A stretch of DNA of 64,000 nt from a virus (IMGVR_UViG_3300040801_004034:1-64000); one strand, 5' to 3'. Positions 20,004 to 61,665 are shown, counted from the stretch's first letter. The notes: generated by a model from the sequence alone, not told the origin. A program made the numbers and translations.

Positions 20004-21314
20004 ATGCCAACACATACTACAACACAAGATTTAGACACAAACTCACCACAAATCGATGGTGCTACAGCTACAAAAGGTTCATTCGGGGTAGCACCGGATG
20101 GTACACGTTATGTTAAAAATGGGCCAGCTGATACTGATTGGGAGGTTGCTGGTACAGGAAGCGATGGAGATGCTACTAACCTTGATCCCTTATTGTTACG
20201 TCAAGCACAGTTAGCACAAGAATACATTGATGGTCAATATACAACAAGTGAAATTAAAACTATCCCGTTTACACCTTCTGTAGCAGGTGATCCGAATAAT
20301 CAGTTTCGTTGCGGTGTTTATGATATCATTAAAGAGCGTATTATATTTATACCAACAAACGGTGAAAAATTTAATATTATAGATCAAAATACTAACACAA
20401 CCACACAATCTACATTCGGTTTAGATCTTACTACACCTAATTGGATATCTGTTTGCTTAGGAAATGATGGTAAAGCATATGCTACACCTGACGCTGATAA
20501 CATTACCGGATTTCTCATTATTGATTTAGAAAACGATACAGCTACTGAATCAAGATTTGGTTTACCGCTTTCAGCTTTCGAAGAAAATGAATTTGGTAAA
20601 GTACAATGGCTTGGAATTTGCAACGGTGGTAATGGAAAGTTGTATGCAATGCCATTTAACAGTAATTTTGTATGCATTATTGATACAGAAACACAGACTG
20701 CTGAGCTTAAAGATTATGGTCTCGATTTTGTTGGAAATGGATCATATAGAGGTTGTATTACAGGTCTTGATGGTAGAATTTACGGCACACCGCTAAATTC
20801 TACTTCGGTCCTTATTATAGATCCGGTAACTGACACAGCTACGCAAACCGATTTCGGTATTGATATGAACGATCAACAATGGAATTATGCTGGTACTGGT
20901 CCTGATGGTAAAATTTACTGCTTACCATATAGAGCAGAAGGTGTATTAATAATTGATCCAGCTACTGATACAGCAATAGTAAAAGACTATGGTGCTGATT
21001 GGGCGGTAAGACGACCAGCATATAGAGGAGCTTCTACAGGTGTTGACGGTAGAATTTACGGTTTTCCATATAGAGGTATACGTGAAATTGCTATTCTTGA
21101 TCCTGTTGCAGACACACTCGAATTCACAACAGCTGGTATAGATTTTGATAACGGTGGTACTAATGGTAGCTCCCTTCGTTATGATGGTGGCGTTATTGCT
21201 TCAAACGGTAATTTATACCCTGTAATGGCAAAAGGTGAGGTACAACTTGTTATAGAAAATAACTTAATTAAAAGTTTCCCAAGAGCATGGACACCACCAT
21301 ATAATAACAATTAA
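20004..21314 (+). CDS. Beta-propeller adhesin-like virion protein
   Basis: The 436-residue protein carries a short N-terminal segment typical of fibre-associated proteins. From about residue 110 it has five to six repeats of about 45 residues. Each has the form G.DGK(I/L)Y..P, then a VLIIDP.TDTA strand and a FG(I/L)D turn, for example GPDGKIYCLPYRAEG and GVDGRIYGFPYRG. This is a beta-propeller pattern. It follows the preceding fibre gene by 3 bp and converges on the gp44 C-terminal gene with a 4-bp overlap. A receptor-binding role is inferred from repeats and neighbours, not proved. Confidence 0.75.
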   Translation: MPTHTTTQDLDTNSPQIDGATATKGSFGVAPDGTRYVKNGPADTDWEVAGTGSDGDATNLDPLLLRQAQLAQEYIDGQYTTSEIKTIPFTPSVAGDPNNQFRCGVYDIIKERIIFIPTNGEKFNIIDQNTNTTTQSTFGLDLTTPNWISVCLGNDGKAYATPDADNITGFLIIDLENDTATESRFGLPLSAFEENEFGKVQWLGICNGGNGKLYAMPFNSNFVCIIDTETQTAELKDYGLDFVGNGSYRGCITGLDGRIYGTPLNSTSVLIIDPVTDTATQTDFGIDMNDQQWNYAGTGPDGKIYCLPYRAEGVLIIDPATDTAIVKDYGADWAVRRPAYRGASTGVDGRIYGFPYRGIREIAILDPVADTLEFTTAGIDFDNGGTNGSSLRYDGGVIASNGNLYPVMAKGEVQLVIENNLIKSFPRAWTPPYNNN

Positions 21315-22045
21315 TATATTTCTTCTAGTTTTACAAAACAAGCAAACGCATTAATTTCTTTGTCCATAACAATTGCATCTTTGTATAAATGCTCACTTAT
21401 ACATAAGATATAACGTTTGCTCTGTTCATCGCTAAGATCTTCACACTTGTAAACATGTTCCAAGTAACCTCTCATCAAGGCATGATAATCACCTTGGAAC
21501 TCGCTGTCATTCTCAATCAAATACTTTCTAAGCTTAAGAGATTTCTTACCTGTAATACATTCATGCATGAATGAGTATATGTTATTGAGATTGGTCAACG
21601 TTTGAATATCTAACTTACCATCAACACAATTTTTCTGTACTTCGTTAATGATCTTACGTATATCTGGAAAGTTATTTTTGATAAGCTTACCAAGCTTTGA
21701 TTTCTGCTCACCACTAACGGTAATACCTTCAGCTGATAAGATATGAGCAACCCTCTTAAGAACATCACCAATATCAGCTGTAAAGTCGAATGACTGTGTT
21801 CTACTCTGAAGGGCTGGAATGATCTTGTGCTTGTAATTAGCTGTAAGTATAAACCTGGTTACCTCACTATACTCTTCAATTGTATTTCGTAGGGCTTTTT
21901 GGCCATCTTTTGAGAGCCCGTCACAATTACTCGTTAATACTTTTTTATTTCCAACAAAGAAATTATGTGTTTCATCAACTGAAAGGTCATAAACTTTCTT
22001 CTTTATACCAATTTTTGTTATTTTTTTAATCTTTAATTTTTGCAT
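21311..22045 (-). CDS. 44: Clamp loader gp44, C-terminal half with C-intein (fractured gene)
   Basis: This gene encodes 244 residues. Residues 1-40 are a C-intein: VYDLSVDETHNFFVGNKKVL followed by TSN is intein blocks F and G, ending in Asn before Cys41. Residues 41-244 are the C-extein, which continues the AAA+ clamp loader: CDGLSKDGQKALRNTIEEY, then RFILTANY and helical lid and collar domains. The N-half is at 22975-23625. Trans-splicing would give a 307-residue protein, near T4 gp44 (319). The C-extein +1 residue is Cys. Its ATG overlaps the endonuclease stop by about 20 bp, which could couple translation. Confidence 0.9.
   Translation of the reverse strand: MQKLKIKKITKIGIKKKVYDLSVDETHNFFVGNKKVLTSNCDGLSKDGQKALRNTIEEYSEVTRFILTANYKHKIIPALQSRTQSFDFTADIGDVLKRVAHILSAEGITVSGEQKSKLGKLIKNNFPDIRKIINEVQKNCVDGKLDIQTLTNLNNIYSFMHECITGKKSLKLRKYLIENDSEFQGDYHALMRGYLEHVYKCEDLSDEQSKRYILCISEHLYKDAIVMDKEINAFACFVKLEEIY
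21926..22045 (-). other. C-intein of the split gp44 intein
   Basis: Forty codons ending in Ser-Asn, just before the Cys at +1. This half supplies the block F and G residues for trans-splicing; the N-intein partner is at 22978-23316. Confidence 0.85.
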
Positions 22046-22970
22046 ATGCCTTTCTCATCATTTTAAGTTGTAATAAATTATCATCTTCAAATTTTGTTTC
22101 GTCAATATATTGTATAATATTTTCTTCATTAATCCATTTAAATGACATTTCATTCTGATCACAATATTCTTGCAATGCTGTCATTTTGTCTATTTCTATA
22201 TTATATCTATTTTTCGGTTTAATTTCATACATTGTACGGGTTTCCGGATCATAAAAATCTGAAATGTATGTTTTGACATCTGTTTTGACTCGTATCGTTT
22301 CATACTCACAATGTTGGTTACATAACCAAAAGCATGCTTCCCACGAACTTCTAAATTTTTTAGTTGTTTCCCCAATTACTATTTTTGCATCCCAGTGTGT
22401 CCATGTATTAGTAATGTTTGGTGTGTATTCACCTGATGCGATTTTCCGTTTCATGGTTCGTGACATTTTCTTTGAACACATCTTTTTATGTTGTTTACCT
22501 TCTTCAGTTTCGTAGAATTTTTTCATACGTTTTGATTTTTTATTCCGCTGAGCTATACCTGCATCTGTCTTATTATATTGTTTAAGTGTTTTACGTATTT
22601 TTTCTATTTCAGATTCAGTTTTTGTGTAATCTCTTAGTTTTGTCCACACACGTTGTTTAATTTCTGATGGCGTATATTTTTTCCAACCGGTCCAACCTTT
22701 AAATGTTCCTGAATAAGAAAAACTATCTTCTGTTAACAAAATTCCAGAATATAAGCTATAGTGCGGTTCTTCGAGTAAAAACAAAAAATGATTAACACTG
22801 GGTTTATCCATCCAGTATACCAAGTTAGTAAACCACAACTTATGTGTATCATATACCTTTTTTGTTACAGGATTATAATAACGTACCTGTTTTTGTTTAT
22901 AATCTTGTACCAAATGTTTTATTGACTCTTTTGAATATGATTTTCTATTCGTTCGATTGCCACCTCTCAT
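22026..22970 (-). CDS. Homing endonuclease inserted in the fractured gp44 gene
   Basis: Starting at ATG 22970 the protein is 314 residues. An upstream ATG/TTG-type start at 23006 would add 12 residues but lies inside the N-intein. The N-terminus is basic, the centre is Lys-rich (RNKKSKRMKKF and MCSKKMSRTMKR) and probably DNA-binding. The C-terminus has WEACFWLCNQHCEYETIRV, then YISDFYDPETRTMYEIKPKN, resembling a PD-(D/E)XK or Vsr-type nuclease core. CATAAATA (22976-22983) lies 5 nt before ATG and overlaps the last codons and stop of the N-intein gene. This endonuclease likely spreads the intein between gp44 alleles; cleavage activity is inferred. Confidence 0.75.
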   Translation of the reverse strand: MRGGNRTNRKSYSKESIKHLVQDYKQKQVRYYNPVTKKVYDTHKLWFTNLVYWMDKPSVNHFLFLLEEPHYSLYSGILLTEDSFSYSGTFKGWTGWKKYTPSEIKQRVWTKLRDYTKTESEIEKIRKTLKQYNKTDAGIAQRNKKSKRMKKFYETEEGKQHKKMCSKKMSRTMKRKIASGEYTPNITNTWTHWDAKIVIGETTKKFRSSWEACFWLCNQHCEYETIRVKTDVKTYISDFYDPETRTMYEIKPKNRYNIEIDKMTALQEYCDQNEMSFKWINEENIIQYIDETKFEDDNLLQLKMMRKAYAKIKD

Positions 22971-22974
22971 ATAA

Positions 22975-23625
22975 TTATTTATGACATTCAACAGTAATAC
23001 TATCAACCTTTGTTAAAATTGTATCTATTCCTTTTGAGATCATATCATCTAATTTCATCCTTTCAATCTCACCGTCTTCATTTTCAACATACCATTTATG
23101 ACTACCAGTACATATTATTTTTTCATCATTTTCAAATTCAAGTTCGTAACAATCTTGTTCACCCATGTAAAAATGGCTAAATGGTCTATACTCTATTCTG
23201 TCTTTTATTTGATTATATGACATTACAAGATCATTATCATGATCAAGATCTTTAATAGGTTGAGTACATTTTTTACCATCTCTCAATACATGGACTGGTG
23301 TATTCTCATCAAGACATTCATCAAGCACAATGATCTTCAAATTTTTATCAAACGATTTCGTCTGTGCAAATCCTACAACTTTACTTCTGATAGTATCAAT
23401 ACCGTTTTCGTCAGATGCATTGATATACATATAATCACATTGCAACTTACTAATGATGATTTTCGCAAGCGTTGTTTTACCAATACCTGGTGTACCACAA
23501 AATAACATATGCGGTATTTCAGATGTTATATTTTCAAAATACTTACGATTTTGATTTGACAACACTAAGTCGTCTAATGTTTGAGGTCTGTAACGTTCTG
23601 TCCACAATTGATTAAATTTATCCAT
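22975..23625 (-). CDS. 44: Clamp loader gp44, N-terminal half with N-intein (fractured gene)
   Basis: This gene encodes 216 residues. Residues 1-103 are the gp44 AAA+ N-extein, with CGTPGIGKTT (Walker A, about 43-52) and LKIIVLDE (Walker B, about 96-103). The intein begins immediately after the Walker B Glu with CLDENTPVHV at residue 104, and has the block B motif GSHKWYV. The N-intein is 113 residues. It starts at ATG 23625. TATAAT lies 6 nt upstream with TTGAAC 16 nt further, so transcription would begin at the start codon. gp62 and gp45 are not adjacent. Confidence 0.9.
   Translation of the reverse strand: MDKFNQLWTERYRPQTLDDLVLSNQNRKYFENITSEIPHMLFCGTPGIGKTTLAKIIISKLQCDYMYINASDENGIDTIRSKVVGFAQTKSFDKNLKIIVLDECLDENTPVHVLRDGKKCTQPIKDLDHDNDLVMSYNQIKDRIEYRPFSHFYMGEQDCYELEFENDEKIICTGSHKWYVENEDGEIERMKLDDMISKGIDTILTKVDSITVECHK
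22976..22983 (-). promoter_or_regulatory. Late-type promoter CATAAATA of the gp44 endonuclease, overlapping the intein stop
   Basis: CATAAATA (minus strand) also encodes His-Lys-stop at the end of the N-intein. Spacer ATTAT, then ATG at 22970. Confidence 0.75.
22978..23316 (-). other. N-intein of the split gp44 intein
   Basis: 113 codons starting with Cys after the Walker B Asp-Glu. Blocks A and B are recognisable (CLDENTPVHV; ICTGSHKWYV). The coding ends with a stop, followed by the separate endonuclease gene. Confidence 0.85.
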
Positions 23626-34825: not shown

Positions 34826-37219
34826 TTATGATGTACCGTTTATGATTTCATCAAAATTAGCACCTGTCTGGGTTGCCAAGAAGTTGACTAAGATAAATTC
34901 AGCTGCTCGAACTGGCTTGATATAAATATCAATCACTAGTTCATTCTGATCAATAACATCATTTGTGTTGTTACGTTCATCACAAATGATTCGGTAATCG
35001 TAAACACCTTCAGTATTCTTAGTAAGTTTGAAGATTGGATCAAGTACGTTGACAACTCGTGTTCGTGTAATCAATGTATTCGGTTCGAACACAAAGTACT
35101 TAGCTGTACGTCTTGTTGCCTTTTCTAACCATAAGAATAATCTACGAACATTAATTCTATCAAATGCACTTGGTTTTGCTTGCATTGTCTTCTGACCGAA
35201 TGTTACAAAACCTTCTCCTGGGAAGAATGCAACCGGGTTAACAGAAATTTTGTATAACTGATCACGTTGCTTCTGTTTAGGGTAGATTGCTAGATCATTA
35301 ACACCTGAAACTAGACCTCTTGTGAAACCTGCTGGTGCATACCAAGGCTGGAAGTTATCATCTGTGTTAGCCATCATAGCTGCCATTGTACCTGACATCG
35401 GTGCCCAGAACTGATCGTCTAGAACACTGTCATAAACCTTACCCCAGTTACCATATGTAGCTGCATAGCTTGTGTTAATTAAACTCATTACAGCTTGGAT
35501 TGGTTTAAGAACGTTTAATGAGAAGTTCTTTGATTTATCTTCAAGAGTCAAGAAATTGCTTCCTTGAACGAAGAACTGTCTTGGAAGATCACCAATGAAC
35601 ATATGATCTTTACGACGTTTTTCAGCAAAATCTGAGAAGCGTTGAAAGATCGTATTGTAATCTGCTCTGAAGGCTTTAGCTTCGTTTGAAATCTCAAGAA
35701 TATTAGATTTGTAGAACCCATCAATAGCACCAACTGCCATTGTATCGTCGAAATATTTCGTACCTGTTGTACGCTCTGTATATTCTGCTGTCGCGTTAAT
35801 AGTGGTAAGACCACCATCAACAGTGAGATCGATATCAAACATATCAATGTTTTCAACACTATCGAATAATCTATCAAGCTTGCGTGGAATAGAACCGAGT
35901 TTCTTTGTCTTAGGATTTGCTTCAGCATATGCACCGAGAGCATAGAGATTATCTGCTGCACCTAATGTTGCTGTTGCTTCAATATAAACATCCTTGATTG
36001 TCTCAGCTTGAGCTGATGTTGTTGCACCTAATGAACTGCTCAATGATACGATATTTGTATTAGCTGCAGATACATTAGCGAAACGAGATGATGTGAAACG
36101 CACCTTCTTCGTTGGCACTCCATTAATATCTAACCATGTGCTACCATTTTTGCTATTAACATATTCATTTGTCATCACAACAACATTCGGTGATGCATTT
36201 TCTCGTGTTTCAATTGAATAGCTGATTGCTGGACCACCATTTTGGTTGTTGATTTGTCTATGTGTATCAAATGAACCAACATATGTTTCTGAAATATTGT
36301 ATGCAAGCTTAATTGTATCAGAGGTGAATGGTGATTGGCTTAATTTAACAACACCGAGCGTTACTGTATCATCAAACTGATTCGATGAAATATCAAACAG
36401 GCTCACATTCTCCATAACTTCAGATATGCTATCATCACTTGAATCAAATGTATTAACTGTTGTTGCAGTATTATCAGAGATTGCTGATAGTGCGAAGTCA
36501 AGTCTTGAACTTGGAAGTGATGTGTATGCTGTTGTAAAGCCTGCTGATTGTGTAACAGTCTTAACACTGAGAATACCATCGAAATCTGTCGCAGGGTTTA
36601 GATTTGTGTTATCAATAGCACCAATATAAAAACCTTGAAACTTCTGATCAATTGTAGTCTGCCCTTTGTTAAGTACAATCATTGCTGCACCGCTTAAGTC
36701 TTGAACGCTATTGAATGATGTTTTCGGTGTATTTCCCCACTGGAAGTATTGAGGATTTTTACCAAGAATACCATAATATTCATCACGTGTAAGTTCAACG
36801 TGTGTTGGTTCACCAAGAATGTATGTCACATCTGTTGATTGTTCATCATACTCAGTAAGTGCTGTACCGAAGTTACTTGATAGTGTACTAACCGCACTAC
36901 ATGGATATGCAAGAGCACCATAATTGCTACCAAAACCAGCTCCTGTATCTTCACCGTATGGTAAGCGATATGTTAAAATATTTGCTGGTGAGTTGAAAAG
37001 TGGTCGAACTGAGTGATAAAAATATCTTTCAGCTGGTGTAGATGGTCTACCGTAAATTTGTTCAAATTCACTCTGGCTTGTAACTTGTATAACCTCATCA
37101 GTTGGCCCTTTAGATGCGAAACCTGGGATTAAAACGTTGGTGCCTGTTGGTAGATTTGCTCTAAGGGATAAATCAATCTCTCTCACCTCGACTCCGGGGC
37201 TCTGTATTTGTCTGCTCAT
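34826..37219 (-). CDS. 18: Tail sheath protein gp18
   Basis: This 797-residue protein is longer than T4 gp18 (659). The start SPGVEVREIDLS and VLIPGFASKGPTDEVIQV match the sheath N-terminus. The C-terminal core has AGFTRGLVSGVNDLAIYPK, then NVRRLFLWLEKATRRTAKYF and FEPNTLITRTRVVNVLD, typical of the conserved sheath handshake domain. The extra length lies in the surface-exposed middle. The sheath contracts to drive the tube through the host envelope. TATAAATA is 7 nt before the ATG and an intrinsic terminator follows. Confidence 0.95.
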   Translation of the reverse strand: MSRQIQSPGVEVREIDLSLRANLPTGTNVLIPGFASKGPTDEVIQVTSQSEFEQIYGRPSTPAERYFYHSVRPLFNSPANILTYRLPYGEDTGAGFGSNYGALAYPCSAVSTLSSNFGTALTEYDEQSTDVTYILGEPTHVELTRDEYYGILGKNPQYFQWGNTPKTSFNSVQDLSGAAMIVLNKGQTTIDQKFQGFYIGAIDNTNLNPATDFDGILSVKTVTQSAGFTTAYTSLPSSRLDFALSAISDNTATTVNTFDSSDDSISEVMENVSLFDISSNQFDDTVTLGVVKLSQSPFTSDTIKLAYNISETYVGSFDTHRQINNQNGGPAISYSIETRENASPNVVVMTNEYVNSKNGSTWLDINGVPTKKVRFTSSRFANVSAANTNIVSLSSSLGATTSAQAETIKDVYIEATATLGAADNLYALGAYAEANPKTKKLGSIPRKLDRLFDSVENIDMFDIDLTVDGGLTTINATAEYTERTTGTKYFDDTMAVGAIDGFYKSNILEISNEAKAFRADYNTIFQRFSDFAEKRRKDHMFIGDLPRQFFVQGSNFLTLEDKSKNFSLNVLKPIQAVMSLINTSYAATYGNWGKVYDSVLDDQFWAPMSGTMAAMMANTDDNFQPWYAPAGFTRGLVSGVNDLAIYPKQKQRDQLYKISVNPVAFFPGEGFVTFGQKTMQAKPSAFDRINVRRLFLWLEKATRRTAKYFVFEPNTLITRTRVVNVLDPIFKLTKNTEGVYDYRIICDERNNTNDVIDQNELVIDIYIKPVRAAEFILVNFLATQTGANFDEIINGTS

Positions 37220-37226
37220 ATACTAT

Positions 37227-37234
37227 TATTTATA
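37227..37234 (-). promoter_or_regulatory. Exact T4 late promoter TATAAATA, 7 nt before the sheath start
   Basis: TATAAATA on the minus strand, spacer ATAGTAT, then ATG. It is back-to-back with the endonuclease promoter at 37262-37269. Confidence 0.8.
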
Positions 37235-37261
37235 TATTGCGGGATATTTTATTAGTACATG

Positions 37262-37269
37262 CTTAAATA
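37262..37269 (+). promoter_or_regulatory. Late-type promoter CTTAAATA, 5 nt before the 37275 start
   Basis: CTTAAATA, spacer ATTTT, then ATG. Confidence 0.7.
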
Positions 37270-37274
37270 ATTTT

Positions 37275-38054
37275 ATGACACCAGGTAACGAAATTAACGA
37301 CATACCATATTATGGGTATATTTATATGTGGACGGATATTAAACGACAAATGTTCTATATAGGTTCTCATAAAGGCAGCTTTTATGATAGTTATAAAGCT
37401 AGCAATACAAGATTAAAACATGCTATTAGAAAGAGACCAGATACATTCACTGTAAGAGTTATAGAATATGTATGTTGTAATGACCGTCATGAGCTTCATA
37501 AGGTTGAAGAAAAATGGCTTAAATTTTATAATGTCGATGCAAATTATGCTTTCTATAATCATAAAAAAACAGCAAGTGGTGGATCAGGACCATCATCAAG
37601 AAAAGGTTTAACACATAAACAATTTTACGGTGATGATTACATCGATCCAAGAAAGGGTAAAACATTAGAACAAATTTATGGTGATGAAGCTACTGTTGTA
37701 AGGAACCGTTTATCTAAAACATTGCAAGATTATTATATCAAACATGGGCATGGTATCAAAAAAGGCATAACACATGACGGTGTTGATCCTCGTAAAGGTA
37801 AAACATTAGAAGAAATTTATGGTTACAAAAAATATGCAAATCCTCCTAAACCATTTAAGATCATGATATCAATACCTGGTCAGAATAGTGTATATGAAAC
37901 ATTCGAGTCCGAACGAGATTTTTTCAAACGTACATTGTTTGAAGCTACCACACTCGATAAAATTAAAAAAGATAAACGACATACTGTTAAGCGTAGATTA
38001 CCATCAACGAAACATAAATACCCTGTCGGTACTACGTTTTTGTTGTATCCTTAA
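37275..38054 (+). CDS. Free-standing GIY-YIG homing endonuclease
   Basis: Starting at ATG 37275 the protein has 259 residues. The N-terminus has a GIY-YIG core: YYGYIYMWTDIKRQMFYIGS (about residues 14-33), then ERVIEY-like and an E in VEEKWLKFYN. Two NUMOD-like DNA-binding repeats follow: DPRKGKTLEQIYGD and DPRKGKTLEEIYGY. It is on the plus strand between minus-strand sheath and tube-like genes and does not interrupt a reading frame. Its stop overlaps the end of the 38665 gene by 4 bp. It probably targets a neighbouring allele in related phages. Confidence 0.8.
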   Translation: MTPGNEINDIPYYGYIYMWTDIKRQMFYIGSHKGSFYDSYKASNTRLKHAIRKRPDTFTVRVIEYVCCNDRHELHKVEEKWLKFYNVDANYAFYNHKKTASGGSGPSSRKGLTHKQFYGDDYIDPRKGKTLEQIYGDEATVVRNRLSKTLQDYYIKHGHGIKKGITHDGVDPRKGKTLEEIYGYKKYANPPKPFKIMISIPGQNSVYETFESERDFFKRTLFEATTLDKIKKDKRHTVKRRLPSTKHKYPVGTTFLLYP

Positions 38055-38665
38055 ATTAGTTCAATATATAGCTGCGAAAATGCAAACTCAAAAGATGAAT
38101 ACAATTCCGCAGAGTCGTCGTTATCATATGTGTATTCAATTGCACCAACAGATACAGGGAATGCATCTTTGTAAATAAATTTTACAACATTCTTATTATA
38201 TTCATCAATACCATAAACTGTAAATGTCGTCTGGTATTGTTGCGGTGGTGTTGCAGATCGTTTAATTTTACCAACCGTCGGTTTTTGTACGTTTGCAACA
38301 TTATCAGCATCATATACAGAATCTTTCATATCATTCAACAATGATAGCCATCTTTGTAACAACCAATAATTATAATATCTATTATCAACAGGAAATTGTA
38401 CAGTCACATTTTCGTACGGCTCTCTTGTATGTAATGATACCTTCATACTCTGACCAGCATATTTTAAAGTTTCAGAATTTACTTTTGTACTTGGCACTAT
38501 CGTACCCTTAATTGATAGCTGTAGCGAATCAGTTATAATTTCACCTTTATCACTCGTACCAAAATTTTTAGTATTGATATCTCTTAAAGCATCTGGTATA
38601 TCGATAACAAGTCTAAACTTGTCTGTACGTGCTTGGTTAAGCGTTGATTGAATTATCTCCCCCAT
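38051..38665 (-). CDS. Tail tube-like / tail completion protein
   Basis: From ATG 38665 the protein is 204 residues (a GTG at 38674 could add three). It has a tube-fold pattern: ARTDKFRLVIDIPDALRDI at the N-terminus, LQLSIKGTIVPSTKVNSETL in the middle, and a C-terminal series QTTFTVYGIDEYNKNVVKFI with FPVSVGAIEYTYDNDDSAEL. It resembles gp19-like proteins and could be a tube terminator or neck protein. It follows the terminase C-half and overlaps its stop. Confidence 0.6.
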   Translation of the reverse strand: MGEIIQSTLNQARTDKFRLVIDIPDALRDINTKNFGTSDKGEIITDSLQLSIKGTIVPSTKVNSETLKYAGQSMKVSLHTREPYENVTVQFPVDNRYYNYWLLQRWLSLLNDMKDSVYDADNVANVQKPTVGKIKRSATPPQQYQTTFTVYGIDEYNKNVVKFIYKDAFPVSVGAIEYTYDNDDSAELYSSFEFAFSQLYIELI

Positions 38666-39858
38666 TGTGTCCACCCTTGTTGTTCTAACATTGCCATATC
38701 ATCATCTTGCGACATACCATTATTTATAAGAGCTGGCATCACATCATAATGTTCTTCATTTTCATTACTCATATAACCACCTGGTCTCATAAACTCTTTG
38801 ATACCATAATCATGCTCTTCAAGTAGAAGTGGTTTGTTTGCCTCGTCTCTCTCAACCACTGTAAAATATTGTTCAATCACATCATCTATAAGAATGATTA
38901 AATTCCACATCAATCCAGCAACACGGTCATCGTAAAATCCTGATTTAGCTTGCCATTTCCCGTTCTTACCCTTTGTGAATGTTTTAAGTTCATTGATTAA
39001 ATGAATGTCACGGATACTTACAGCACGTACATTAGTGACCCAATGTCTCATGTTTGTTACACCAATATGTTTTGTGTTAGTATGACTAATTATACCATTT
39101 TGTATTGATTTACGTTTTGCTTTACTGGCGCCCCACGATACTATTTTTTCATAGTTGTGAACATTTTTAAGACCATCAACGACCTGTGCACCACTATTAT
39201 TACGTTCGACACAGACTAAAGGCATTCCCCAGTTTTGTAATATCTCATGTACTTTTTCAACAAAATTATACGGTGCTATTTCATTGTTATGATAACAAGC
39301 AACCTGTTTAATTTCTGTAAGATCTGTATAATCAAAAATTTGCACCACACTAGCATCACGCCCTATACCTTCACTTGTATCAACACTTGCAACATAGATT
39401 TTCTCATCACTTGGTTCTTCCCATATCTTATAATGGCCGTTATCATAAACATATTTTGGTTCATATGTGTTCGATTTCAAAAACTCGAACATTTCCTCAT
39501 TAATAGTCTGATCTGATGAATCAATCCACACACAATTATGGCTATACATATCATTTGTATAATATGCTTTAGTACCATCAACATTTACGATATCGTAAAC
39601 AACACGATCACCACATGGGTGTTTCGAAATAACTTTCTGTAAACCACTTAAGGTTTCCACACCTGTACCTAGTAGTATATCGTTAACTCGTTCAAAACCG
39701 TATTCCGTTTTCAACATATGGTCATACGATGCAGTTAGACTATATACACCACAGTTAATTGATATACATGGTTTTGTTTGCTTAGATATACCATAGAATG
39801 TTTTATATCCTTCTTCAGTCAATACTTTCGTATTGTTAATATTTTTAATGAATTCCAT
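38653..39858 (-). CDS. 17: Terminase large subunit gp17, C-terminal half with large C-intein (fractured gene)
   Basis: This gene encodes 401 residues. Residues 1-108 are an unusually long C-intein. It starts NTKVLTEEGYKTFYG, has the block B region YSLTASYDHMLKT, and ends VDGTKAYYTNDMYSHN before Cys109. Residues 109-401 are the C-extein with the nuclease domain: IYVASVDTSEGIGRDASVVQ is the first Asp-containing nuclease motif. The N-half with a short N-intein is at 40660-41562. Joined protein would be about 560 residues (T4 gp17 is 610). The intein halves match the split position of the published AceL-TerL intein as I recall it. Confidence 0.9.
   Translation of the reverse strand: MEFIKNINNTKVLTEEGYKTFYGISKQTKPCISINCGVYSLTASYDHMLKTEYGFERVNDILLGTGVETLSGLQKVISKHPCGDRVVYDIVNVDGTKAYYTNDMYSHNCVWIDSSDQTINEEMFEFLKSNTYEPKYVYDNGHYKIWEEPSDEKIYVASVDTSEGIGRDASVVQIFDYTDLTEIKQVACYHNNEIAPYNFVEKVHEILQNWGMPLVCVERNNSGAQVVDGLKNVHNYEKIVSWGASKAKRKSIQNGIISHTNTKHIGVTNMRHWVTNVRAVSIRDIHLINELKTFTKGKNGKWQAKSGFYDDRVAGLMWNLIILIDDVIEQYFTVVERDEANKPLLLEEHDYGIKEFMRPGGYMSNENEEHYDVMPALINNGMSQDDDMAMLEQQGWTQWGR
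39535..39858 (-). other. C-intein of the split terminase intein (atypical split)
   Basis: 108 codons, containing the usual N-terminal block B and C-terminal blocks F and G. The matching N-intein is only 33 residues, so the break lies near the N-terminus, unlike the gp44 and gp41 inteins here. Confidence 0.85.
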
Positions 39859-40228
39859 CTTTAGTAATATTTAGGTCGTTAATAGGAGTAATACGATCAT
39901 CATATATGATAACGAAATTACAGTTCAGTTCTTCCTGTATATCCTGTTGTCTCATATGGTCCTTTTTCATTTGACCTGGTGTAAGATGATATGGCTCATA
40001 CACCTCAAAAACAGTGTTCGTTTTATGACAATAACCGTCTGGAAAATAAGAGAGTACTCTAAAATTTCTATCTATTTTAATATTTTGATGTTGTTCATAA
40101 TAATCTAATATATCAGATTCTCTGTATCCTTTATTGATGAATGATGTTATACCTCTCTGTCGTTTTATATTTTGACATTTTTTACCATTTTGTTTATATT
40201 GTGAATTCCATGCGACGATGATATTCAA
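39845..40228 (-). CDS. Endonuclease C-terminal ORF in the fractured terminase (possible frameshift)
   Basis: The 127-codon frame would start with TTG at 40228. It contains SYFPDGYCHKTNTVFEVYEP, then a KKDHMRQQDIQEELNCNFVI segment, resembling a Vsr-type nuclease core with an acidic metal-binding site. It overlaps ORF 40194-40721 by 35 bp in another frame. The two are probably pieces of one endonuclease: the first has DNA-binding and zinc motifs, the second the nuclease domain. Its end overlaps the start of the terminase C-half by 14 bp. Confidence 0.6.
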   Translation of the reverse strand: MNIIVAWNSQYKQNGKKCQNIKRQRGITSFINKGYRESDILDYYEQHQNIKIDRNFRVLSYFPDGYCHKTNTVFEVYEPYHLTPGQMKKDHMRQQDIQEELNCNFVIIYDDRITPINDLNITKDGIH

Positions 40229-40721
40229 GATAATGTTTCCTCCAATCGTTCCCGTATGTATACATGAAATGTTCTCGTTTGTTTGGCATTATTCTGCACT
40301 TACCGCAGTATGCTTTTTCTTTAAATTGCTGTGTAGCAGCGTCCCATGTAATTTTCGAACCGCATTTACAATAGTATTTTCTCGGTATATCACCACCACA
40401 AAAACCTAATATAAACAAATGCGCAGAAAAACTCTTCGTTTTGAGTTTATCATGATATTCTATACCGTAATGTTGCACGCTTTTGAATAATGAAATATCA
40501 TCCTTTTGCATTTTTCTATTACCAGATTTACCGAGATATTTTTTCCAATTATCATCTTCTGATAGCATACTAATAGTTTTTTGCTTACTATATAATTGTG
40601 CTTGTTCTAATCGGTTTTTTTGTGTTGTATACCAATTTGTTGTTATTTCACTCTGGTTTTCATTTGCTTTCGCACTGTAGTCTTTCGTAAAGTTCTTCGA
40701 TTGTTTGGGTATATTGTTCAT
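40194..40721 (-). CDS. Homing endonuclease N-terminal ORF in the fractured terminase
   Basis: The 175-residue product starts inside the N-intein coding region at ATG 40721. ATTAAGTA (40728-40735) lies 6 nt upstream. It is Lys-rich and has a four-cysteine zinc-ribbon-like motif (YYCKCGSKITW, then AYCGKCRIM). It lacks a nuclease core, which appears in the +1-shifted frame downstream. It is either a DNA-binding part of a frameshifted enzyme or a separate partner. Confidence 0.6.
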   Translation of the reverse strand: MNNIPKQSKNFTKDYSAKANENQSEITTNWYTTQKNRLEQAQLYSKQKTISMLSEDDNWKKYLGKSGNRKMQKDDISLFKSVQHYGIEYHDKLKTKSFSAHLFILGFCGGDIPRKYYCKCGSKITWDAATQQFKEKAYCGKCRIMPNKREHFMYTYGNDWRKHYLEYHRRMEFTI

Positions 40722-41562
40722 TTTTATTACTTAATCGAACAAGAGTGTTTCCAGCGCAACAACCAAATTCTTGATCAAACGCTTCTTCACTATCCATACT
40801 AGCTTTTGTAAGCTTTACCCATGCATCATCTCTACCAGGTACTTCATTCCAAAGCACCTTATCACATGCCCAACCATTTGTGTTGTTTTCTGCACCAGTG
40901 AAAAGCTTGTAAAATAAGTTGTCAGTACCATTTGCAGTAGATGCTATAAAAATCTTAGATTTCTTAGAAGATGAAATAACAGGGTATACAGATGACCAGA
41001 ACGGCTTCATAATATGTGGTTCAACGAAAGCCATTTCGTCAATAATAAGAGTACCAACTGCTTGACCACGAGCTGCAGTACCTGTTGTTGTCGAAATATT
41101 AATCTGACTACCATTACTCAATTCAACTGATGTCTTACCATAAGCAACAACACCAGGCTTTAACCAGTTTGGCAATTCTTCGTATGCAAGTCTAACACGA
41201 CCGAGAATTTCAATAGCTGTATCCTCTTTATTTGCTACAATAAGAATACGTTGGTCTTTTTGAAAGCAAGCCACCCATAAAGCGTATATTGTAAAGAGTG
41301 TTGTTTTACCAATCTGTCTAGATGCTAATAATATAAAGAAACGATTTTTGACCATCTTCCTAAGAACCCGGTCCTGAAATTTATGAAGCGTGATAGGTTT
41401 TCTACCTTCGTCAACATTAATAATAGTAAAAAACTTTGAGAAAAAATGAATATCATTTTTTGCTTTAATCAGATCACGCATCATCTCTGGTGTATAATCG
41501 TGTTCAGCTCTCGCGGTAGGCAAATTAGGATTATTTTTGTATGACTGTGTATTTTGCGACAT
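40660..41562 (-). CDS. 17: Terminase large subunit gp17, N-terminal half with short N-intein (fractured gene)
   Basis: The 300-residue protein has residues 1-267 as the ATPase N-extein. It shows LASRQIGKTTLF (Walker A, about 79-90), a typical adenine-binding Gln region around LHKFQDRVL and TLIIDEMAFVE (Walker B). It ends at FDQEFG, where T4-like terminases continue with CEF. The next 33 residues (CCAGNTLVRLSN, ending TIEELYERLQ then CESK) form a short N-intein. The C-half is at 38653-39858. Terminase packages DNA into proheads, so protein trans-splicing would be required for virion production. The gene is divergent from the 41581 gene. Confidence 0.9.
   Translation of the reverse strand: MSQNTQSYKNNPNLPTARAEHDYTPEMMRDLIKAKNDIHFFSKFFTIINVDEGRKPITLHKFQDRVLRKMVKNRFFILLASRQIGKTTLFTIYALWVACFQKDQRILIVANKEDTAIEILGRVRLAYEELPNWLKPGVVAYGKTSVELSNGSQINISTTTGTAARGQAVGTLIIDEMAFVEPHIMKPFWSSVYPVISSSKKSKIFIASTANGTDNLFYKLFTGAENNTNGWACDKVLWNEVPGRDDAWVKLTKASMDSEEAFDQEFGCCAGNTLVRLSNKNEQYTQTIEELYERLQCESK
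40663..40761 (-). other. N-intein of the split terminase intein (33 residues)
   Basis: The fragment starts at the Cys of CCAGNTLV and ends with a stop. Its coding sequence also carries the late-type promoter and start codon of the inserted endonuclease. Confidence 0.8.
40728..40735 (-). promoter_or_regulatory. Late-type promoter ATTAAGTA of the terminase endonuclease, inside intein codons
   Basis: ATTAAGTA (minus strand) is part of codons for Arg-Leu-Ser-Asn of the N-intein. Spacer ATAAAA, then ATG at 40721. It uses the TAAGTA variant found at 45941 and 62008. Confidence 0.55.
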
Positions 41563-45940: not shown

Positions 45941-47065
45941 ATGGTCGATGTAATTGAAAAATACAAACAAGGTTCTTCAATGAGAGAGCTTGCTATAGAG
46001 TACAAATGTTCACAGAACAAAATTAAAAAATATCTTGTTGATAACAATATTACATTACGAACACGATCCCAAGCACTATCAAAGAATACATGCGAACAAT
46101 ATAGAGATGAGATACTTCAAAAGTACGCAGATTCTATAACAATTGGTCGGTTAACAAAAGAGTATAACATACCTAGTCATAAAATACGCGAATTCCTCAA
46201 ATCGAACGATGTTCATGTCCGTACTAAAGAAGAAGAATATATAACCGAATGCGAACAACAAAACATCAATATACAGGACATAGTTCGCAGGTATAATGAA
46301 GATGGTGTACCTGCAAAGGAACTTTCCAGGATTTACAACACATCCCATACACGTATAAAGACAATTTTCAACAAATTCGGTAACGGGTTAAAAACAACGA
46401 AAGAAATTCGTAACAGTAAATGGTATAATGATAAATTATCGAAAACAACAACTAAAATACAAGACCAAACACAGATAGATGATATTCTAGAAATGTACAG
46501 TAATGATGTTAGATGCGAGGATATAGCTGAAAAATATAACATATCTATTGGATCTATTATGAATCTTCTAAACCGTGTTGGTGTTGAGAAACGCTGTAGA
46601 AAACAAGTTGATAAGAATGCAGTAGCTCAACGAGAAGCTACAATGAATGAAAAATACGGTGTATCATATTTTATGCAGGATCCTAAAAACATATACAAAC
46701 CGTATTGTATGTATAGTGTCGAAATTGAGGGTATCGAATATACGAATTTACAAGGTTTTGAAAAACAAGGTATTATATATTTGAATGAATGTTACAACAT
46801 AAACTATAGCGAGATTTTAGCAGGTCGAAACGAACATATACCGACGATAAAATATGTTTCAACAGATAAAAAACAACACTACTATTTTCCTGATATCTAC
46901 ATACCGTCTCAAAATATGTTAATCGAAATCAAATGTGAGTATACATTTTCAACTTCGAAACATATTACAATGCTTAAACACAAAGCATGTAAAGAGCAGG
47001 GGTATAAACACAAAATTATTATATTCAACAACACCGGAACAGAAATAATTGAAACTATAGCTTAA
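45941..47065 (+). CDS. Free-standing homing endonuclease with four HTH repeats
   Basis: The 374-residue protein contains four helix-turn-helix-like repeats of about 45 residues at the N-terminus: SMRELAIEYKCSQNKIKKYL, TIGRLTKEYNIPSHKIREFL, PAKELSRIYNTSHTRIKTIF and RCEDIAEKYNISIGSIMNLL. The C-terminal part has YYFPDIYIPSQNMLIEIKCE and a KHKIIIFN strand, resembling a Vsr/PD-(D/E)XK nuclease core with E..K. It inserts between two small late genes and does not interrupt a recognised gene. Endonuclease function is inferred from architecture. Confidence 0.75.
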   Translation: MVDVIEKYKQGSSMRELAIEYKCSQNKIKKYLVDNNITLRTRSQALSKNTCEQYRDEILQKYADSITIGRLTKEYNIPSHKIREFLKSNDVHVRTKEEEYITECEQQNINIQDIVRRYNEDGVPAKELSRIYNTSHTRIKTIFNKFGNGLKTTKEIRNSKWYNDKLSKTTTKIQDQTQIDDILEMYSNDVRCEDIAEKYNISIGSIMNLLNRVGVEKRCRKQVDKNAVAQREATMNEKYGVSYFMQDPKNIYKPYCMYSVEIEGIEYTNLQGFEKQGIIYLNECYNINYSEILAGRNEHIPTIKYVSTDKKQHYYFPDIYIPSQNMLIEIKCEYTFSTSKHITMLKHKACKEQGYKHKIIIFNNTGTEIIETIA

Positions 47066-58090: not shown

Positions 58091-58477
58091 TCAACTCATT
58101 CTACCTAGTTCATCCGAAACGTCATCAATATCGTTTCTTCTTGCAGCAAGATTATCATCCTCTTCAATCCAAAGCGTGTCATAATTGATTCTCATTGCAT
58201 TACTACCGAAATTCGGTCCGAATCTATTTTTAACTGAACCTATGTTGATAATACCTAGTTCTTTATCTTCAGGAGATTGAAAAATATTGTAAATAGCATC
58301 ACAAGTAGCAGCAAGACCGTATGATTCACTGATTGTATCAAGCCCTGGTGAATTTTGACCATATCCACTATTATGTGTTAGAATTCCATTTGCAAAAAAT
58401 AAATTATCATCCGATACAGATATATCTACTGTTTCAATTTCACCTATTTCTTGTATTTCTACTATTTCATCAACCAT
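58091..58477 (-). CDS. 41: Replicative helicase gp41, C-terminal part with C-intein (fractured gene)
   Basis: From ATG 58477 the protein has 128 residues. Residues 1-36 are a C-intein (MVDEIVEIQEIGEIETVDIS, ending VSDDNLFFANGILTHN) very like the published gp41-1 C-intein. Ser at +1 begins the C-extein (SGYGQNSPGLDTISESYG), 92 residues that complete the RecA-like helicase domain. The start overlaps the endonuclease stop (ATGGTTGA), so translation is coupled. The N-part is at 59696-61015. Confidence 0.9.
   Translation of the reverse strand: MVDEIVEIQEIGEIETVDISVSDDNLFFANGILTHNSGYGQNSPGLDTISESYGLAATCDAIYNIFQSPEDKELGIINIGSVKNRFGPNFGSNAMRINYDTLWIEEDDNLAARRNDIDDVSDELGRMS
58370..58477 (-). other. 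C-intein of the split gp41 intein
   Basis: 36 codons ending Thr-His-Asn, followed by Ser at +1. The N-intein partner is at 59699-59965. Confidence 0.85.
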
Positions 58478-59660
58478 AAAGGTGTTGTTTACATTTTTCA
58501 ATTGTTTCATCAGGTTTTTCATTATAATCTTTCTCCCATATTACCAGAACATCAAATCCTAGATTTTTTATTATAGCTTGTTTTTCTGCATCTTCAATCC
58601 AAATTTGCTCACATGTAAGATCATTATAAGGATTAGGTTTATCAGTGTTACGGTAAATATCAGGGTTACCATGGAATACATCACCATTAAATTCAATAAC
58701 TTTTTTTCTATCAACATTTACATAATCATAAAAGAAGCTTCGTTTTTTATGTTGTTTATGAAATTCTTTGTTTTTGATCGCATAATATGTATTTTCAGTG
58801 TTACTATCAATCAACTCAAATAGTTGTTGTGATATTTTTGAGAAACCAGAGACCCCTATAGCGCTGTGTGTACACCAGTGTAAATATTTTCTTTCACCGA
58901 GTTCAATACCGTATTTACTAATATAAAAATCTTTTGTATTCCTAAATCTGCATAGTTCTATATGTTTTTCATATTTTTCAGCGCCTTCTTTTTCACCATA
59001 CTTCCTTTTAAAAGACTGCAGCGATTTATGATCTTTAGCTTGTTTCATTTTTTTCGGACCATCTATAACACCATATTTTTTAATAAACCCTTCTTTTGAA
59101 CTACCGAAATGTAGTTTCATTATTTTTTCGTTGTATAATATTACACCTTCATCTTCTCCGTATTTTTGTATATAACTCTCTAACGTATGTTTTTTCTTTT
59201 CCTTTTCTCTCATCAATCTGAATCTTTTACGACCATCAGCATCACCGTATTTTTTTACAAATCGTTCAATCGTTTTATTACCTTTATTATTTTCACACTT
59301 TTCAGCAAATTTCTCACGTCCTTTTATTTCCCCATATAATTTAACATAATTATCAATAGTATGTGCTTTTTTATTACACGCTTGTTCATACCGTTTTTTA
59401 CCTTCCTTTTCTCCAAACTTTAATATACAACCTTCTAGTGTTGATGCAGATTTATACATTTTATTATATTTTTCTATCTTTTTAAGACGATCTAGCCACG
59501 GAAACGGTATATCATACTCGCAAAATCTTGCTAACTGAACCATTTGCATGATAGATAGTTTTTCATAAACATCTTCAATAATTTGTATTTGTTTCTGCTG
59601 TTGCAGGTCAGGGGTTTTATTACAATGTTTTTTCCAGTTTTTTGACTTGTAGTATACCAT
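58470..59660 (-). CDS. Homing endonuclease inserted in fractured gp41
   Basis: From ATG 59660 the protein has 396 residues (59666 is an alternative but leaves no spacer to the promoter). The N-terminal half carries seven repeats of about 25-30 residues with a (K/L)YG.xxGxx(R/K)(Y/F) pattern, such as VKKYGDADGRKRF and IQKYGEDEGVILY; these are probably DNA-binding. The C-terminus has YDYVNVDRKKVIEFNGDVFH, then FDVLVIWEKDYNE, a Vsr-like nuclease core. CATAAATA (59667-59674) lies 6 nt upstream. This matches the Vsr-related homing endonuclease family described for fractured genes. Confidence 0.85.
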   Translation of the reverse strand: MVYYKSKNWKKHCNKTPDLQQQKQIQIIEDVYEKLSIMQMVQLARFCEYDIPFPWLDRLKKIEKYNKMYKSASTLEGCILKFGEKEGKKRYEQACNKKAHTIDNYVKLYGEIKGREKFAEKCENNKGNKTIERFVKKYGDADGRKRFRLMREKEKKKHTLESYIQKYGEDEGVILYNEKIMKLHFGSSKEGFIKKYGVIDGPKKMKQAKDHKSLQSFKRKYGEKEGAEKYEKHIELCRFRNTKDFYISKYGIELGERKYLHWCTHSAIGVSGFSKISQQLFELIDSNTENTYYAIKNKEFHKQHKKRSFFYDYVNVDRKKVIEFNGDVFHGNPDIYRNTDKPNPYNDLTCEQIWIEDAEKQAIIKNLGFDVLVIWEKDYNEKPDETIEKCKQHLYG

Positions 59661-59666
59661 AAACAT

Positions 59667-59674
59667 TATTTATG
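59667..59674 (-). promoter_or_regulatory. Late-type promoter CATAAATA of the gp41 endonuclease
   Basis: CATAAATA on the minus strand, spacer ATGTTT, then ATG (59660). Confidence 0.7.
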
Positions 59675-59695
59675 ACTGCTACACAGATTAACATG

Positions 59696-61015
59696 CTATT
59701 TCTCAGTAAAAAGTTTATCACCTACCTCTAAACCAGTATTGATTGATTTTACAAGCTGATTGGATACTGGAAACATATGTTTACCGCTACAAATAATTTC
59801 TTTACCAGACTTTAACTTTATTTTATAACATTTTTGCGTTTCTACAGGATAAACATATCTCACATCAACATATTTTTTTGACCCTAATATTTTATCTCCT
59901 ATTTTTAAATCAACAATGCGTTTATTACCATTTGGTGTTTTCACCACAGTATTGATATCCAAGCATCTGTTAATCTGAGATGCTGTGATTATAGGGCAAC
60001 TAAAAATGTATGACAAGGCTCGAACCTTTTCAGACACACCTTTAATACGTTCATAAAGCTGACTATTTTCATTACCTTTAATCAAATTCAAATAGTCAAG
60101 AACGATTGCATCAAATTTAAACCCTGAACTTTGTACTGATTTTAAATAACCCTGCAATCCTTCTACAGTAACAGTGTTAGGTGGAAATTCTTTTACAACA
60201 ATTGACCCTTGTTTTGGTTGACCTTCTTGCTCATTCATCATGTGCTTGAGTGTTACTGTTTGAGACTTAAGTTCTCGTACAGGTATTTTCGTTAATCCTG
60301 ATACGAGTCGTCTACCATACATCATTTCAGCCATTTCAAATGATATCAGTAGTACGTTTTTACCGGATGCTGCTATATTACATGCAACATTACCAAGAAC
60401 AATACTCTTACCAATATTAGTCTCACCGACGAACATGTATAATGAACGACCATTTTGTAAAAAGCCGCCATCTAAACTATTATTCAACCAATCCCACCCA
60501 GTAGTAATTGTCGGTTCATCGACATTCAAATCATCGATTAAACGATCAATATCTTTAAAGAGATCAAGACCAATATCAGTAGTAAGGTCAACATTACAAC
60601 TCCTCTCGAAACTATCTAAAATATAAGCTGTATCAATATTACCTTGTGAAAAATCCTCTGCAACACTCAACATTGTATTGTAAATTGCACGTTCTTTAAT
60701 AAAACGCTCAGTATTACTTACCAATTCATCTTTATCAAGAACACGATCAAAGTCTTTTACTTCCTTGATTATGTTTTTGAAGTTTTCTTTGAGAGTATCG
60801 TTAACCAAGAACGATTTAATCTCTGTTATGGTCGGTATTTTCTGTCGACGTTCATAGAACGTTTTAATAACAGTAAAAACATTTTTGATATCTTTGTTCT
60901 TAAAATGACTTGGGTCTACAAAAGGTATTACTTGTGTTAAGTATTGCTCATCGAACAGGCATTGATGTATTAAAATCTTCTCAAAAAAATCTGTATCTAG
61001 TCTTTGTTTTTCCAT
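59696..61015 (-). CDS. 41: Replicative helicase gp41, N-terminal part with N-intein (fractured gene)
   Basis: From ATG 61015 the protein has 439 residues. Residues 1-350 are a DnaB/gp41 N-extein with the Walker A segment FVGETNIGKSIVL and Walker B ending FDAIVLDYLNLIKG. The extein breaks after TASQINR. The last 89 residues are an N-intein beginning CLDINTVVKTPNG, similar to gp41-1. The C-part is at 58091-58477; joined length is about 442 (T4 gp41 475). gp41 unwinds the fork with gp61 primase. The start overlaps the preceding glycosyltransferase-like gene. Confidence 0.9.
   Translation of the reverse strand: MEKQRLDTDFFEKILIHQCLFDEQYLTQVIPFVDPSHFKNKDIKNVFTVIKTFYERRQKIPTITEIKSFLVNDTLKENFKNIIKEVKDFDRVLDKDELVSNTERFIKERAIYNTMLSVAEDFSQGNIDTAYILDSFERSCNVDLTTDIGLDLFKDIDRLIDDLNVDEPTITTGWDWLNNSLDGGFLQNGRSLYMFVGETNIGKSIVLGNVACNIAASGKNVLLISFEMAEMMYGRRLVSGLTKIPVRELKSQTVTLKHMMNEQEGQPKQGSIVVKEFPPNTVTVEGLQGYLKSVQSSGFKFDAIVLDYLNLIKGNENSQLYERIKGVSEKVRALSYIFSCPIITASQINRCLDINTVVKTPNGNKRIVDLKIGDKILGSKKYVDVRYVYPVETQKCYKIKLKSGKEIICSGKHMFPVSNQLVKSINTGLEVGDKLFTEK
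59699..59965 (-). other. N-intein of the split gp41 intein
   Basis: 89 codons starting CLDINT and ending before a stop. Block B is EIICSGKHMFP. Close to the gp41-1 N-intein as remembered. Confidence 0.85.
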
Positions 61016-61665
61016 TTGTTTAGAAACCATCTCTGTCCATTATAGAATGTTTCATCTGGTTTATCAAGGCCTGGTGATTGATGAATGACTGGTATGTCAA
61101 CAACCCCAACAGATACTTTGTGTTCGTTACATGTCAGACATATGTCAAGGTCATAAAAATGAAACTTACTCGGGCAGGTTTCATCAAATCGAACTTCATC
61201 CGGTAACTGTTTAATATTGATACATATGAATAGACCATCTATCAATAGCGCTCTTGATGGTAACGGGCCAAATGAAGTATACATGTATTGATCTTCAGAA
61301 CCATGAGCAACACAACCTCTATGATCTTTACGATCCGACATTAAATGCCATAGTGCTGGTTCTTTCAAATTACAACCTCTTGAACCAGCTAAACCGTTGA
61401 CTGTATAAACGCAGTTGTTTTGGATACGATCCCATAAATCGGAGCAGTTAATATACACATCATCGTGTATCAAAACTAAGAAATCGTATTTGTAATTTTT
61501 TGCTTCTTGAATACACTTGTTATAGTATGATTGTAAAGGTTCTGAATTATTTTCTTTGAACTTAAAATGTAAAAAATATTGATCTAATAGTTTTTTGCTG
61601 CTTTTAAACAGAGCTGTATCTTCTTTTTTACCTTTTGTAGCGCTACATACTAAAATATTACTCAT
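60997..61665 (-). CDS. Glycosyltransferase-like protein
   Basis: From ATG 61665 the protein has 222 residues. It has a GT2-like pattern with FLVLIHDDVYIN near residue 65 (acidic metal-binding) and a C-terminal FHFYDLDICLTC with VVDIPVIHQSPG. It lacks a membrane segment. The start overlaps the upstream gene stop. It may add a sugar to DNA, protein or host glycans. The assignment is moderate. Confidence 0.55.
   Translation of the reverse strand: MSNILVCSATKGKKEDTALFKSSKKLLDQYFLHFKFKENNSEPLQSYYNKCIQEAKNYKYDFLVLIHDDVYINCSDLWDRIQNNCVYTVNGLAGSRGCNLKEPALWHLMSDRKDHRGCVAHGSEDQYMYTSFGPLPSRALLIDGLFICINIKQLPDEVRFDETCPSKFHFYDLDICLTCNEHKVSVGVVDIPVIHQSPGLDKPDETFYNGQRWFLNKWKNKD

What the first reader, a model, noticed from the sequence alone, without database searches (positions are those of the whole stretch)
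38653..41562. Fractured terminase with an atypically split intein (33 + 108 residues)
The N-part ends with a very short N-intein (33 residues from CCAGNTLV) and the C-part begins with a 108-residue C-intein containing block B. This matches the split position of AceL-TerL, an Antarctic lake phage intein, with similar segments such as IEELYERL versus IEDLYKRL. The insertion is at the QEF|C site of gp17. Atypically split inteins with short N-parts are rare and valued for study of splicing. DNA packaging in this phage would depend on trans-splicing.
Basis: partly seen in the sequence, partly recalled or inferred. Interest (0 to 1): 0.85.

Follow-up and report, generated by a model that had tools for sequence, protein, structure and literature searches.

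The report
Phage terminase gene split by intein
A large uncultured phage makes its DNA-packaging motor (terminase) as two separate proteins, each carrying part of a self-splicing intein cut at an unusual place, so the motor probably has to be stitched together after translation; this is a clear new example of a known arrangement that turns out to be widespread in T4-like phages.

Summary
Confirmed. On the minus strand, terL is split into an N-half (300 aa, ending in a 33-residue IntN) and a C-half (401 aa, starting with a 108-residue IntC). Between them lie two overlapping ORFs that look like a PD-(D/E)xK-type (DUF559/DUF7487) homing endonuclease broken by a frame change. Joined exteins give a 560-aa T4 gp17-type terminase. 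Relatives 63-67% identical in the N-extein have one uninterrupted ORF with an empty site exactly at EFG|C. No other terL was found in the 221-kb record. IntC's best sequence match among solved structures is CatC, the engineered AceL/GOS-TerL consensus with an atypical split; its model has the HINT fold. So it is an S2-type, AceL/GOS-TerL-like split intein. Corrections: the junction is QEFG|C, not QEF|C, and the kind is not rare: 70 phage records encode a related IntC, and T4-like coliphages such as HY03 share the layout N-half/endonuclease/C-half. Relatives with the endonuclease free, fused to either half, or absent suggest that the split arises by endonuclease insertion at S2. The window also has two canonically split fractured genes (clamp loader, DnaB helicase). 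New member of a known kind; trans-splicing itself is untested.

The parts
40762..41562 (-). terL N-extein (267 aa, ATPase part, ends FDQEFG)
   Evidence: Terminase_6N E=2e-14; phrog_5989 E=3e-47; 67% identical to the uninterrupted TerL of L065
40663..40761 (-). N-intein, 33 aa, Cys1, ends after the first helix (IEELYERL); stop codon at 40660-40662
   Evidence: Translation; aligns with N-inteins of PSTRCR_127, PX29, HY03 and others
40194..40721 (-). HENa, 175 aa, N-terminal part of a probable homing endonuclease, Cys-pair motifs (CKCG..CGKC)
   Evidence: ORF; no family match; no relatives beyond identical contigs; role inferred from position
39845..40228 (-). HENb, 127 aa, probable nuclease domain of the homing endonuclease, in another frame; SD-like GGAGGA 10 nt before its TTG
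   Evidence: Weak DUF7487 E=2e-4 and DUF559 E=0.04, both under Pfam's cut-off; 35-40% identity to DUF559-type phage proteins, best E=2e-7; upstream sequence
39535..39858 (-). C-intein, 108 aa, block-B-like SxxH, ends His-Asn
   Evidence: CatC best PDB sequence match E=9e-5; AlphaFold2 model pLDDT 93.6; inteins as best fold matches
38653..39534 (-). terL C-extein (293 aa, starts Cys+1, RNase H-like nuclease part) and stop codon
   Evidence: phrog_24361 E=1e-9; 50% identical to the uninterrupted TerL of L065; joined exteins match T4 gp17

Best explanation
This is a fractured T4-type terL whose two halves are joined by protein trans-splicing through a split intein cut at the S2 position (after the first helix), as in AceL-TerL and GOS-TerL. 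Shown from sequence: two ORFs, each with part of an intein carrying class-1 residues (Cys1, block-B His, His-Asn end, Cys+1); an empty, uninterrupted site in relatives; no second terL in the record. Inferred: both halves are translated from one message with coupled starts; the 33-aa IntN docks into the partly folded 108-aa IntC; splicing releases the intein and joins the ATPase and nuclease domains at FDQEFG-CVWIDS, restoring a 560-aa packaging motor. Also inferred: the element arrived as a selfish unit with its own homing endonuclease, whose gene lies at the split point. That gene is now in two frames, so the endonuclease is probably decaying (or made as two pieces), while the intein is kept because packaging needs it.
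For: Joined exteins align to T4 gp17 over 6-476 with E=5e-55. Empty site EFG|C in relatives 67%, 63% and (as EFN|C) 53% identical in the N-extein. Single TerL locus in the 221,292-bp record. IntC matches CatC and its high-confidence model is an intein fold. N-intein aligns to those of related fractured terL genes. Same layout, two halves with a free endonuclease ORF between, in cultured phages HY03, PspYZU05 and PSTRCR_127. The same split works with the gene halves about 26 kb apart in Fletchervirus. No Rfam match that would suggest an RNA intron.
Against: No splicing assay. IntN alone is too short for a significant match. Pairwise identity to known inteins is modest (41% to the Krischvirus IntC). 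Block A has Asn where Asp is common. The record may be incomplete, so a second terL elsewhere is not fully excluded. The endonuclease assignment rests on weak matches and a poor model.
Confidence: 0.92

Rival explanations
1. The halves are not spliced: TerL works as two separate polypeptides (genes in pieces), the intein parts being relics.
For: The break lies near the ATPase-nuclease domain boundary as judged from the T4 gp17 alignment, and a phage nucleotide reductase split by a homing endonuclease is known to work as two peptides (stated in PMC10448857).
Against: All splicing residues and the whole HINT sequence are kept, which relics would not be; many unrelated phages keep the same pair.
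Confidence: 0.04
2. An RNA-level intron joins the two coding parts, as reported for the terL of phage ICP1.
For: terL is spliced at the RNA level in ICP1, next to a homing endonuclease (PMC10448857).
Against: No Rfam match in the locus even at a lax threshold or in the window; the intein halves are translated in frame with the exteins and explain the break exactly.
Confidence: 0.01
3. Assembly or sequencing artefact: a contiguous intein with an in-frame endonuclease, broken by errors.
For: HENa and HENb are in different frames; one contig (3300040780_000016) starts, and another of that sample (3300040780_000035) ends, inside this locus.
Against: Each half has its own start and stop, the sequence is identical in L003 and in the overlapping part of L002, and cultured phages show the same layout with separate ORFs. 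The frame change in the endonuclease alone could still be an error shared by related assemblies.
Confidence: 0.03

Closest known systems
AceL-TerL and GOS-TerL split inteins, and their engineered consensus Cat (PDB 6DSL)
   Same: Inserted in TerL; split after helix 1 (S2); short IntN (25 and 37 aa, 30 in Cat; here 33) and IntC of about 104 (here 108); IntC sequence and fold match CatC (lengths from PMC11766414, PMC13014065)
   Different: Only about 31% identical to CatC in the fold alignment; Cys1/Cys+1 rather than the Ser1/Cys+1 of GOS-TerL; native AceL/GOS not aligned directly
Fractured gp17 of cultured T4-like phages: Tequatrovirus HY03, Pseudomonas PspYZU05, Providencia PSTRCR_127, Aeromonas PX29, Krischvirus JK32, Vibrio VP-1
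   Same: terL in two ORFs with the same kind of short IntN and long IntC and an endonuclease at the split; HY03, PspYZU05 and PSTRCR_127 have it as a free ORF
   Different: HY03, PspYZU05 and JK32 use the Walker B DE|C site; PSTRCR_127 and PX29 insert one residue earlier than here; endonuclease GIY-YIG in PSTRCR_127, PX29 and VP-1; here the endonuclease is in two frames
Fractured genes with split inteins and a homing endonuclease between (Dassa et al. 2009, cited in PMC11766414 and PMC13014065; not held, content known to the author from memory)
   Same: Two gene halves with intein parts and an intervening endonuclease gene
   Different: The classical cases split canonically (S0); this one splits at S2. 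The gp44-like and DnaB loci of this window are classical
VidaL split intein (PDB 6VGV)
   Same: Atypically split with short IntN; top Foldseek hit
   Different: Split at S1 after strand 2 with a 16-aa IntN (PMC13014065); only a distant sequence match (E=0.01)

Membership tests
Atypically (S2) split TerL inteins (AceL/GOS/Cat) | Short N-intein (natural range 15-37 aa, PMC13014065) | tested here: met
   33 aa
Atypically (S2) split TerL inteins (AceL/GOS/Cat) | Split directly after the first helix, so IntC starts just before the next strand | tested here: met
   IntC residues 3-107 align with CatC residues 10-111 of 118; SRB7757 shows the unsplit equivalent
Atypically (S2) split TerL inteins (AceL/GOS/Cat) | Sequence relation to the group | tested here: met
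   CatC best PDB match, E=9e-5; profile of the relatives E=3e-23
Atypically (S2) split TerL inteins (AceL/GOS/Cat) | Catalytic residues: Cys/Ser1, block-B His, His-Asn end, Cys+1 | tested here: met
   Cys1; H47, H107 and N108 invariant in the alignment; Cys follows
Atypically (S2) split TerL inteins (AceL/GOS/Cat) | Direct alignment to native AceL-TerL and GOS-TerL | not tested
   Sequences not available here
Atypically (S2) split TerL inteins (AceL/GOS/Cat) | Protein trans-splicing activity | not testable with these tools
   Needs expression of both halves
Intein (HINT fold) | HINT-domain fold | tested here: met
   IntC model pLDDT 93.6; best Foldseek hits VidaL, gp41-1, Cat
Fractured gene (split intein plus homing endonuclease) | Gene interrupted relative to uninterrupted relatives, in two ORFs with intein halves | tested here: met
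   Empty sites in L065-L067 and L070
Fractured gene (split intein plus homing endonuclease) | Homing endonuclease gene between the halves | tested here: inconclusive
   HENb resembles DUF559/DUF7487 weakly; in two frames; model poor
T4 gp17-type large terminase | Full-length match with Walker A/B ATPase and RNase H-like acidic residues in the joined exteins | tested here: met
   Alignment to 3EZK, E=5e-55, residues 6-476; SRQIGKTT, TLIIDE, VDTSEG, VERNNSG, YDDRV in register with T4

The most novel reading that the evidence does not exclude
The S2 position of the intein fold is a second, repeatedly used entry point for homing endonucleases, distinct from the classical S0 site, and atypically split inteins are the fractured products of such entry. 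In TerL inteins at four insertion sites the endonuclease (GIY-YIG or PD-(D/E)xK-like) is found at S2 fused to IntN, fused to IntC, free between the halves, in two frames (this window), or gone (L048; Fletchervirus, with the gene halves about 26 kb apart), beside uninterrupted mini-inteins (SRB7757). The window would show the decay step.
Probability: 0.4. Interest if true: 0.6.

Novelty: new member of a known kind. Interest (0 to 1): 0.42.

Why it matters
It adds a natural Cys1/Cys+1 split intein with a 33-aa IntN, a size that can be made by peptide synthesis, to a tool class with few characterised natural members. With its relatives it gives a comparative series (contiguous, endonuclease-fused, free endonuclease, broken, lost, unlinked) that makes the origin of atypical splitting testable. 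It also means that an essential packaging motor depends on trans-splicing, and that annotation pipelines can miss or half-annotate terL in such phages.

Tried and rejected
The first C-intein alignment (A1) was too divergent to scan with; a closer one worked. IntN alone gives no significant match in the PDB. The tree of 18 C-inteins is mostly unresolved for this member, so no claim is made on whether it moved from the Walker B site. HENb single-sequence model too poor for a fold search. HENa has no relatives beyond identical contigs. RNA intron rejected: no Rfam match. Second terL in the record: none found. Nucleotide-level relative among phage records: none. Promoter and terminator scans at chance level.

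Full report
What is there. On the minus strand of the window, terL is in two pieces. The N-half (41562..40660, 300 aa) ends ..EEAFDQEFG|CCAGNTLVRLSNKNEQYTQTIEELYERLQCESK*; the last 33 residues are the N-intein. The C-half (39858..38653, 401 aa) opens with a 108-residue C-intein ending ..YYTNDMYSHN, followed by |CVWIDSSDQ. Between them are two overlapping ORFs in different frames, HENa (40721..40194) and HENb (40228..39845). Neighbouring ORFs overlap by 62, 35 and 14 nt, which suggests a translationally coupled string.

It is a terminase. The N-half matches Terminase_6N (E=2e-14) and terminase PHROGs (best E=3e-47); the C-half matches a terminase PHROG more weakly (E=1e-9). Joining the exteins at the predicted junction gives 560 aa that align to T4 gp17 over residues 6-476 (E=5e-55), with the Walker A and B and the nuclease acidic residues in register. 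The break falls between the ATPase and nuclease parts, so neither half alone should be a packaging motor (inference from T4 gp17).

It is an insertion, and the site can be fixed. A viral-contig scan with the N-half found relatives 67% (L065), 63% (L066) and 53% (L070) identical in the N-extein. Each has a single ORF running straight through..EEAFDQEFGC|EFIDGG....EEAFDQEFGC|KFIQTG....EEAFEQEFNC|SFIEKG... The DNA next to the site is conserved (TTTGATCAAGAATTTGG on the N-side in window, L065 and L066).

It is a split intein cut at S2. The C-intein carries a block-B-like SxxH and ends His-Asn before Cys+1. A PDB sequence search returns CatC, the engineered AceL/GOS-TerL consensus, as best match (E=9e-5; query 3-107 on CatC 10-111). 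The AlphaFold2 model (pLDDT 93.6) has inteins as its best fold matches: VidaL, gp41-1 and Cat. Papers place AceL-TerL (25-aa IntN) and GOS-TerL (37-aa IntN) at the S2 split after helix 1 (PMC13014065, PMC11766414). The present 33 + 108 fits that class. The comparison with native AceL was made through Cat because the primary papers are not held.

It is not alone. A tblastn of the C-intein found 70 phage records, 67 of them with at least 80% of the query covered; most listed matches with annotation lie in terminase genes, and an unannotated 462-kb phage has one in a PhoH-like gene. The records and contigs read here show four kinds of insertion site in TerL: Walker A GK|C, upstream of Walker B, Walker B DE|C, and the present QE(F/H/Y)-(x)|C site, where PSTRCR_127 and PX29 insert one residue earlier. 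The endonuclease varies. It is a free ORF between the halves in HY03, PspYZU05 (PD-(D/E)xK-like by motif) and PSTRCR_127 (GIY-YIG); fused to the N-half in JK32, Thanatos-2 and VP-1; fused to the C-half in PX29, Va1 and L004; absent in L048, which has the same site as here, and in Fletchervirus. SRB7757 has an unsplit mini-intein. In Fletchervirus PC5 the two halves lie about 26 kb apart on opposite strands, so there only joining in trans could restore one protein. PX29 is already annotated with a putative N-intein and C-intein, and an intein in the terL of a Campylobacter coli phage was reported (PMC3322345). The kind is therefore known, even if few cases have been tested at the bench.

The endonuclease. 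HENb has weak DUF7487 and DUF559 matches, both under the curated cut-off, and 35-40% identity to phage proteins of the DUF559 type. HENa carries Cys-pair motifs and by eye resembles the part that precedes the nuclease in Va1. The two look like one gene with a frame change near 40200. The same sequence is in two further IMG/VR contigs, so it is not an error of one contig, though all may come from one population or related samples. HENb has a Shine-Dalgarno-like GGAGGA 10 nt before its TTG, so a two-piece enzyme is possible; decay is the simpler reading.

Context. The window holds two more fractured genes, both canonically split: a gp44-like clamp loader (N 23625..22975, endonuclease-like 23006..22026, C 22045..21311) and a DnaB-type helicase (N 61030..59696, endonuclease-like 59666..58470, C 58522..58091). 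The record also has an uninterrupted intein in a ribonucleotide reductase at 116970-117899. One genome thus shows canonically split, atypically split and contiguous inteins side by side.

Mechanism. Shown from sequence: the parts, their residues, the empty site, the lone terL. Inferred: IntN docks on a partly folded IntC, splicing joins FDQEFG to CVWIDS, and packaging depends on it. The rivals (two working polypeptides, RNA intron, artefact) are each less likely for the reasons given with them. The tree of C-inteins does not resolve whether this copy moved from another site.

Verdict. Real, correctly read in essence, and a new member of a known kind. The most novel idea it supports is that S2 is a second entry point for homing endonucleases in inteins and that atypically split inteins are the outcome; this was not tested formally.

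Noticed in passing
21311-23625 (-): Fractured gp44-like clamp loader with a canonically split intein (about 110-aa IntN after IIVLDE|C, about 40-aa IntC before |CDGLS) and an endonuclease-like ORF between the halves.
   Followed up: partly
58091-61030 (-): Fractured DnaB/gp41-type helicase with a canonically split intein (SQINR|CLDINT.. and ..ILTHN|SGYG) and a DUF559/MTES_1575-like endonuclease ORF between the halves.
   Followed up: partly
G000 116970-117899 (+), L020: Outside the window, an uninterrupted intein with a LAGLIDADG-like motif in a ribonucleotide reductase gene of the same record.
   Followed up: partly
L029 with L055 (Campylobacter phage PC5), L031 with L056 (NCTC12673): terL in two halves about 26 kb apart, on opposite strands in both, each with an atypical intein part (IntN CVAGDTKITVRNKKTGVIEDITMEELYNRIG) and no endonuclease between. 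In NCTC12673 no gene is annotated over the C-half; the PC5 announcement mentions an intein-like sequence only in a ribonucleotide reductase of PC14.
   Followed up: partly
37137-38054 (+), 62008-62823 (+), 45941-47065 (+): Free-standing homing-endonuclease-like genes: GIY-YIG between tail tube and tail sheath genes, a second one with a weak DUF7487 match, and a helix-turn-helix protein with a strong DUF7487 match.
   Followed up: no
L028 (LR756500.1, 462-kb uncultured phage): Atypically split intein of the same kind in a PhoH-like gene (26-aa IntN, endonuclease-like ORF between), so the S2 split is not confined to TerL.
   Followed up: no
L044-L046 and L071-L073: TerL genes with two inteins (L044: split at Walker A and contiguous near Walker B), and close relatives of this phage with a 934-aa TerL ORF that is empty at the present site and probably holds a contiguous intein near Walker A.
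   Followed up: no
L048 (IMGVR_UViG_3300002231_005069): Fractured terL at the same kind of site with no endonuclease ORF: the two halves are 18 nt apart, as expected after loss of the endonuclease.
   Followed up: partly
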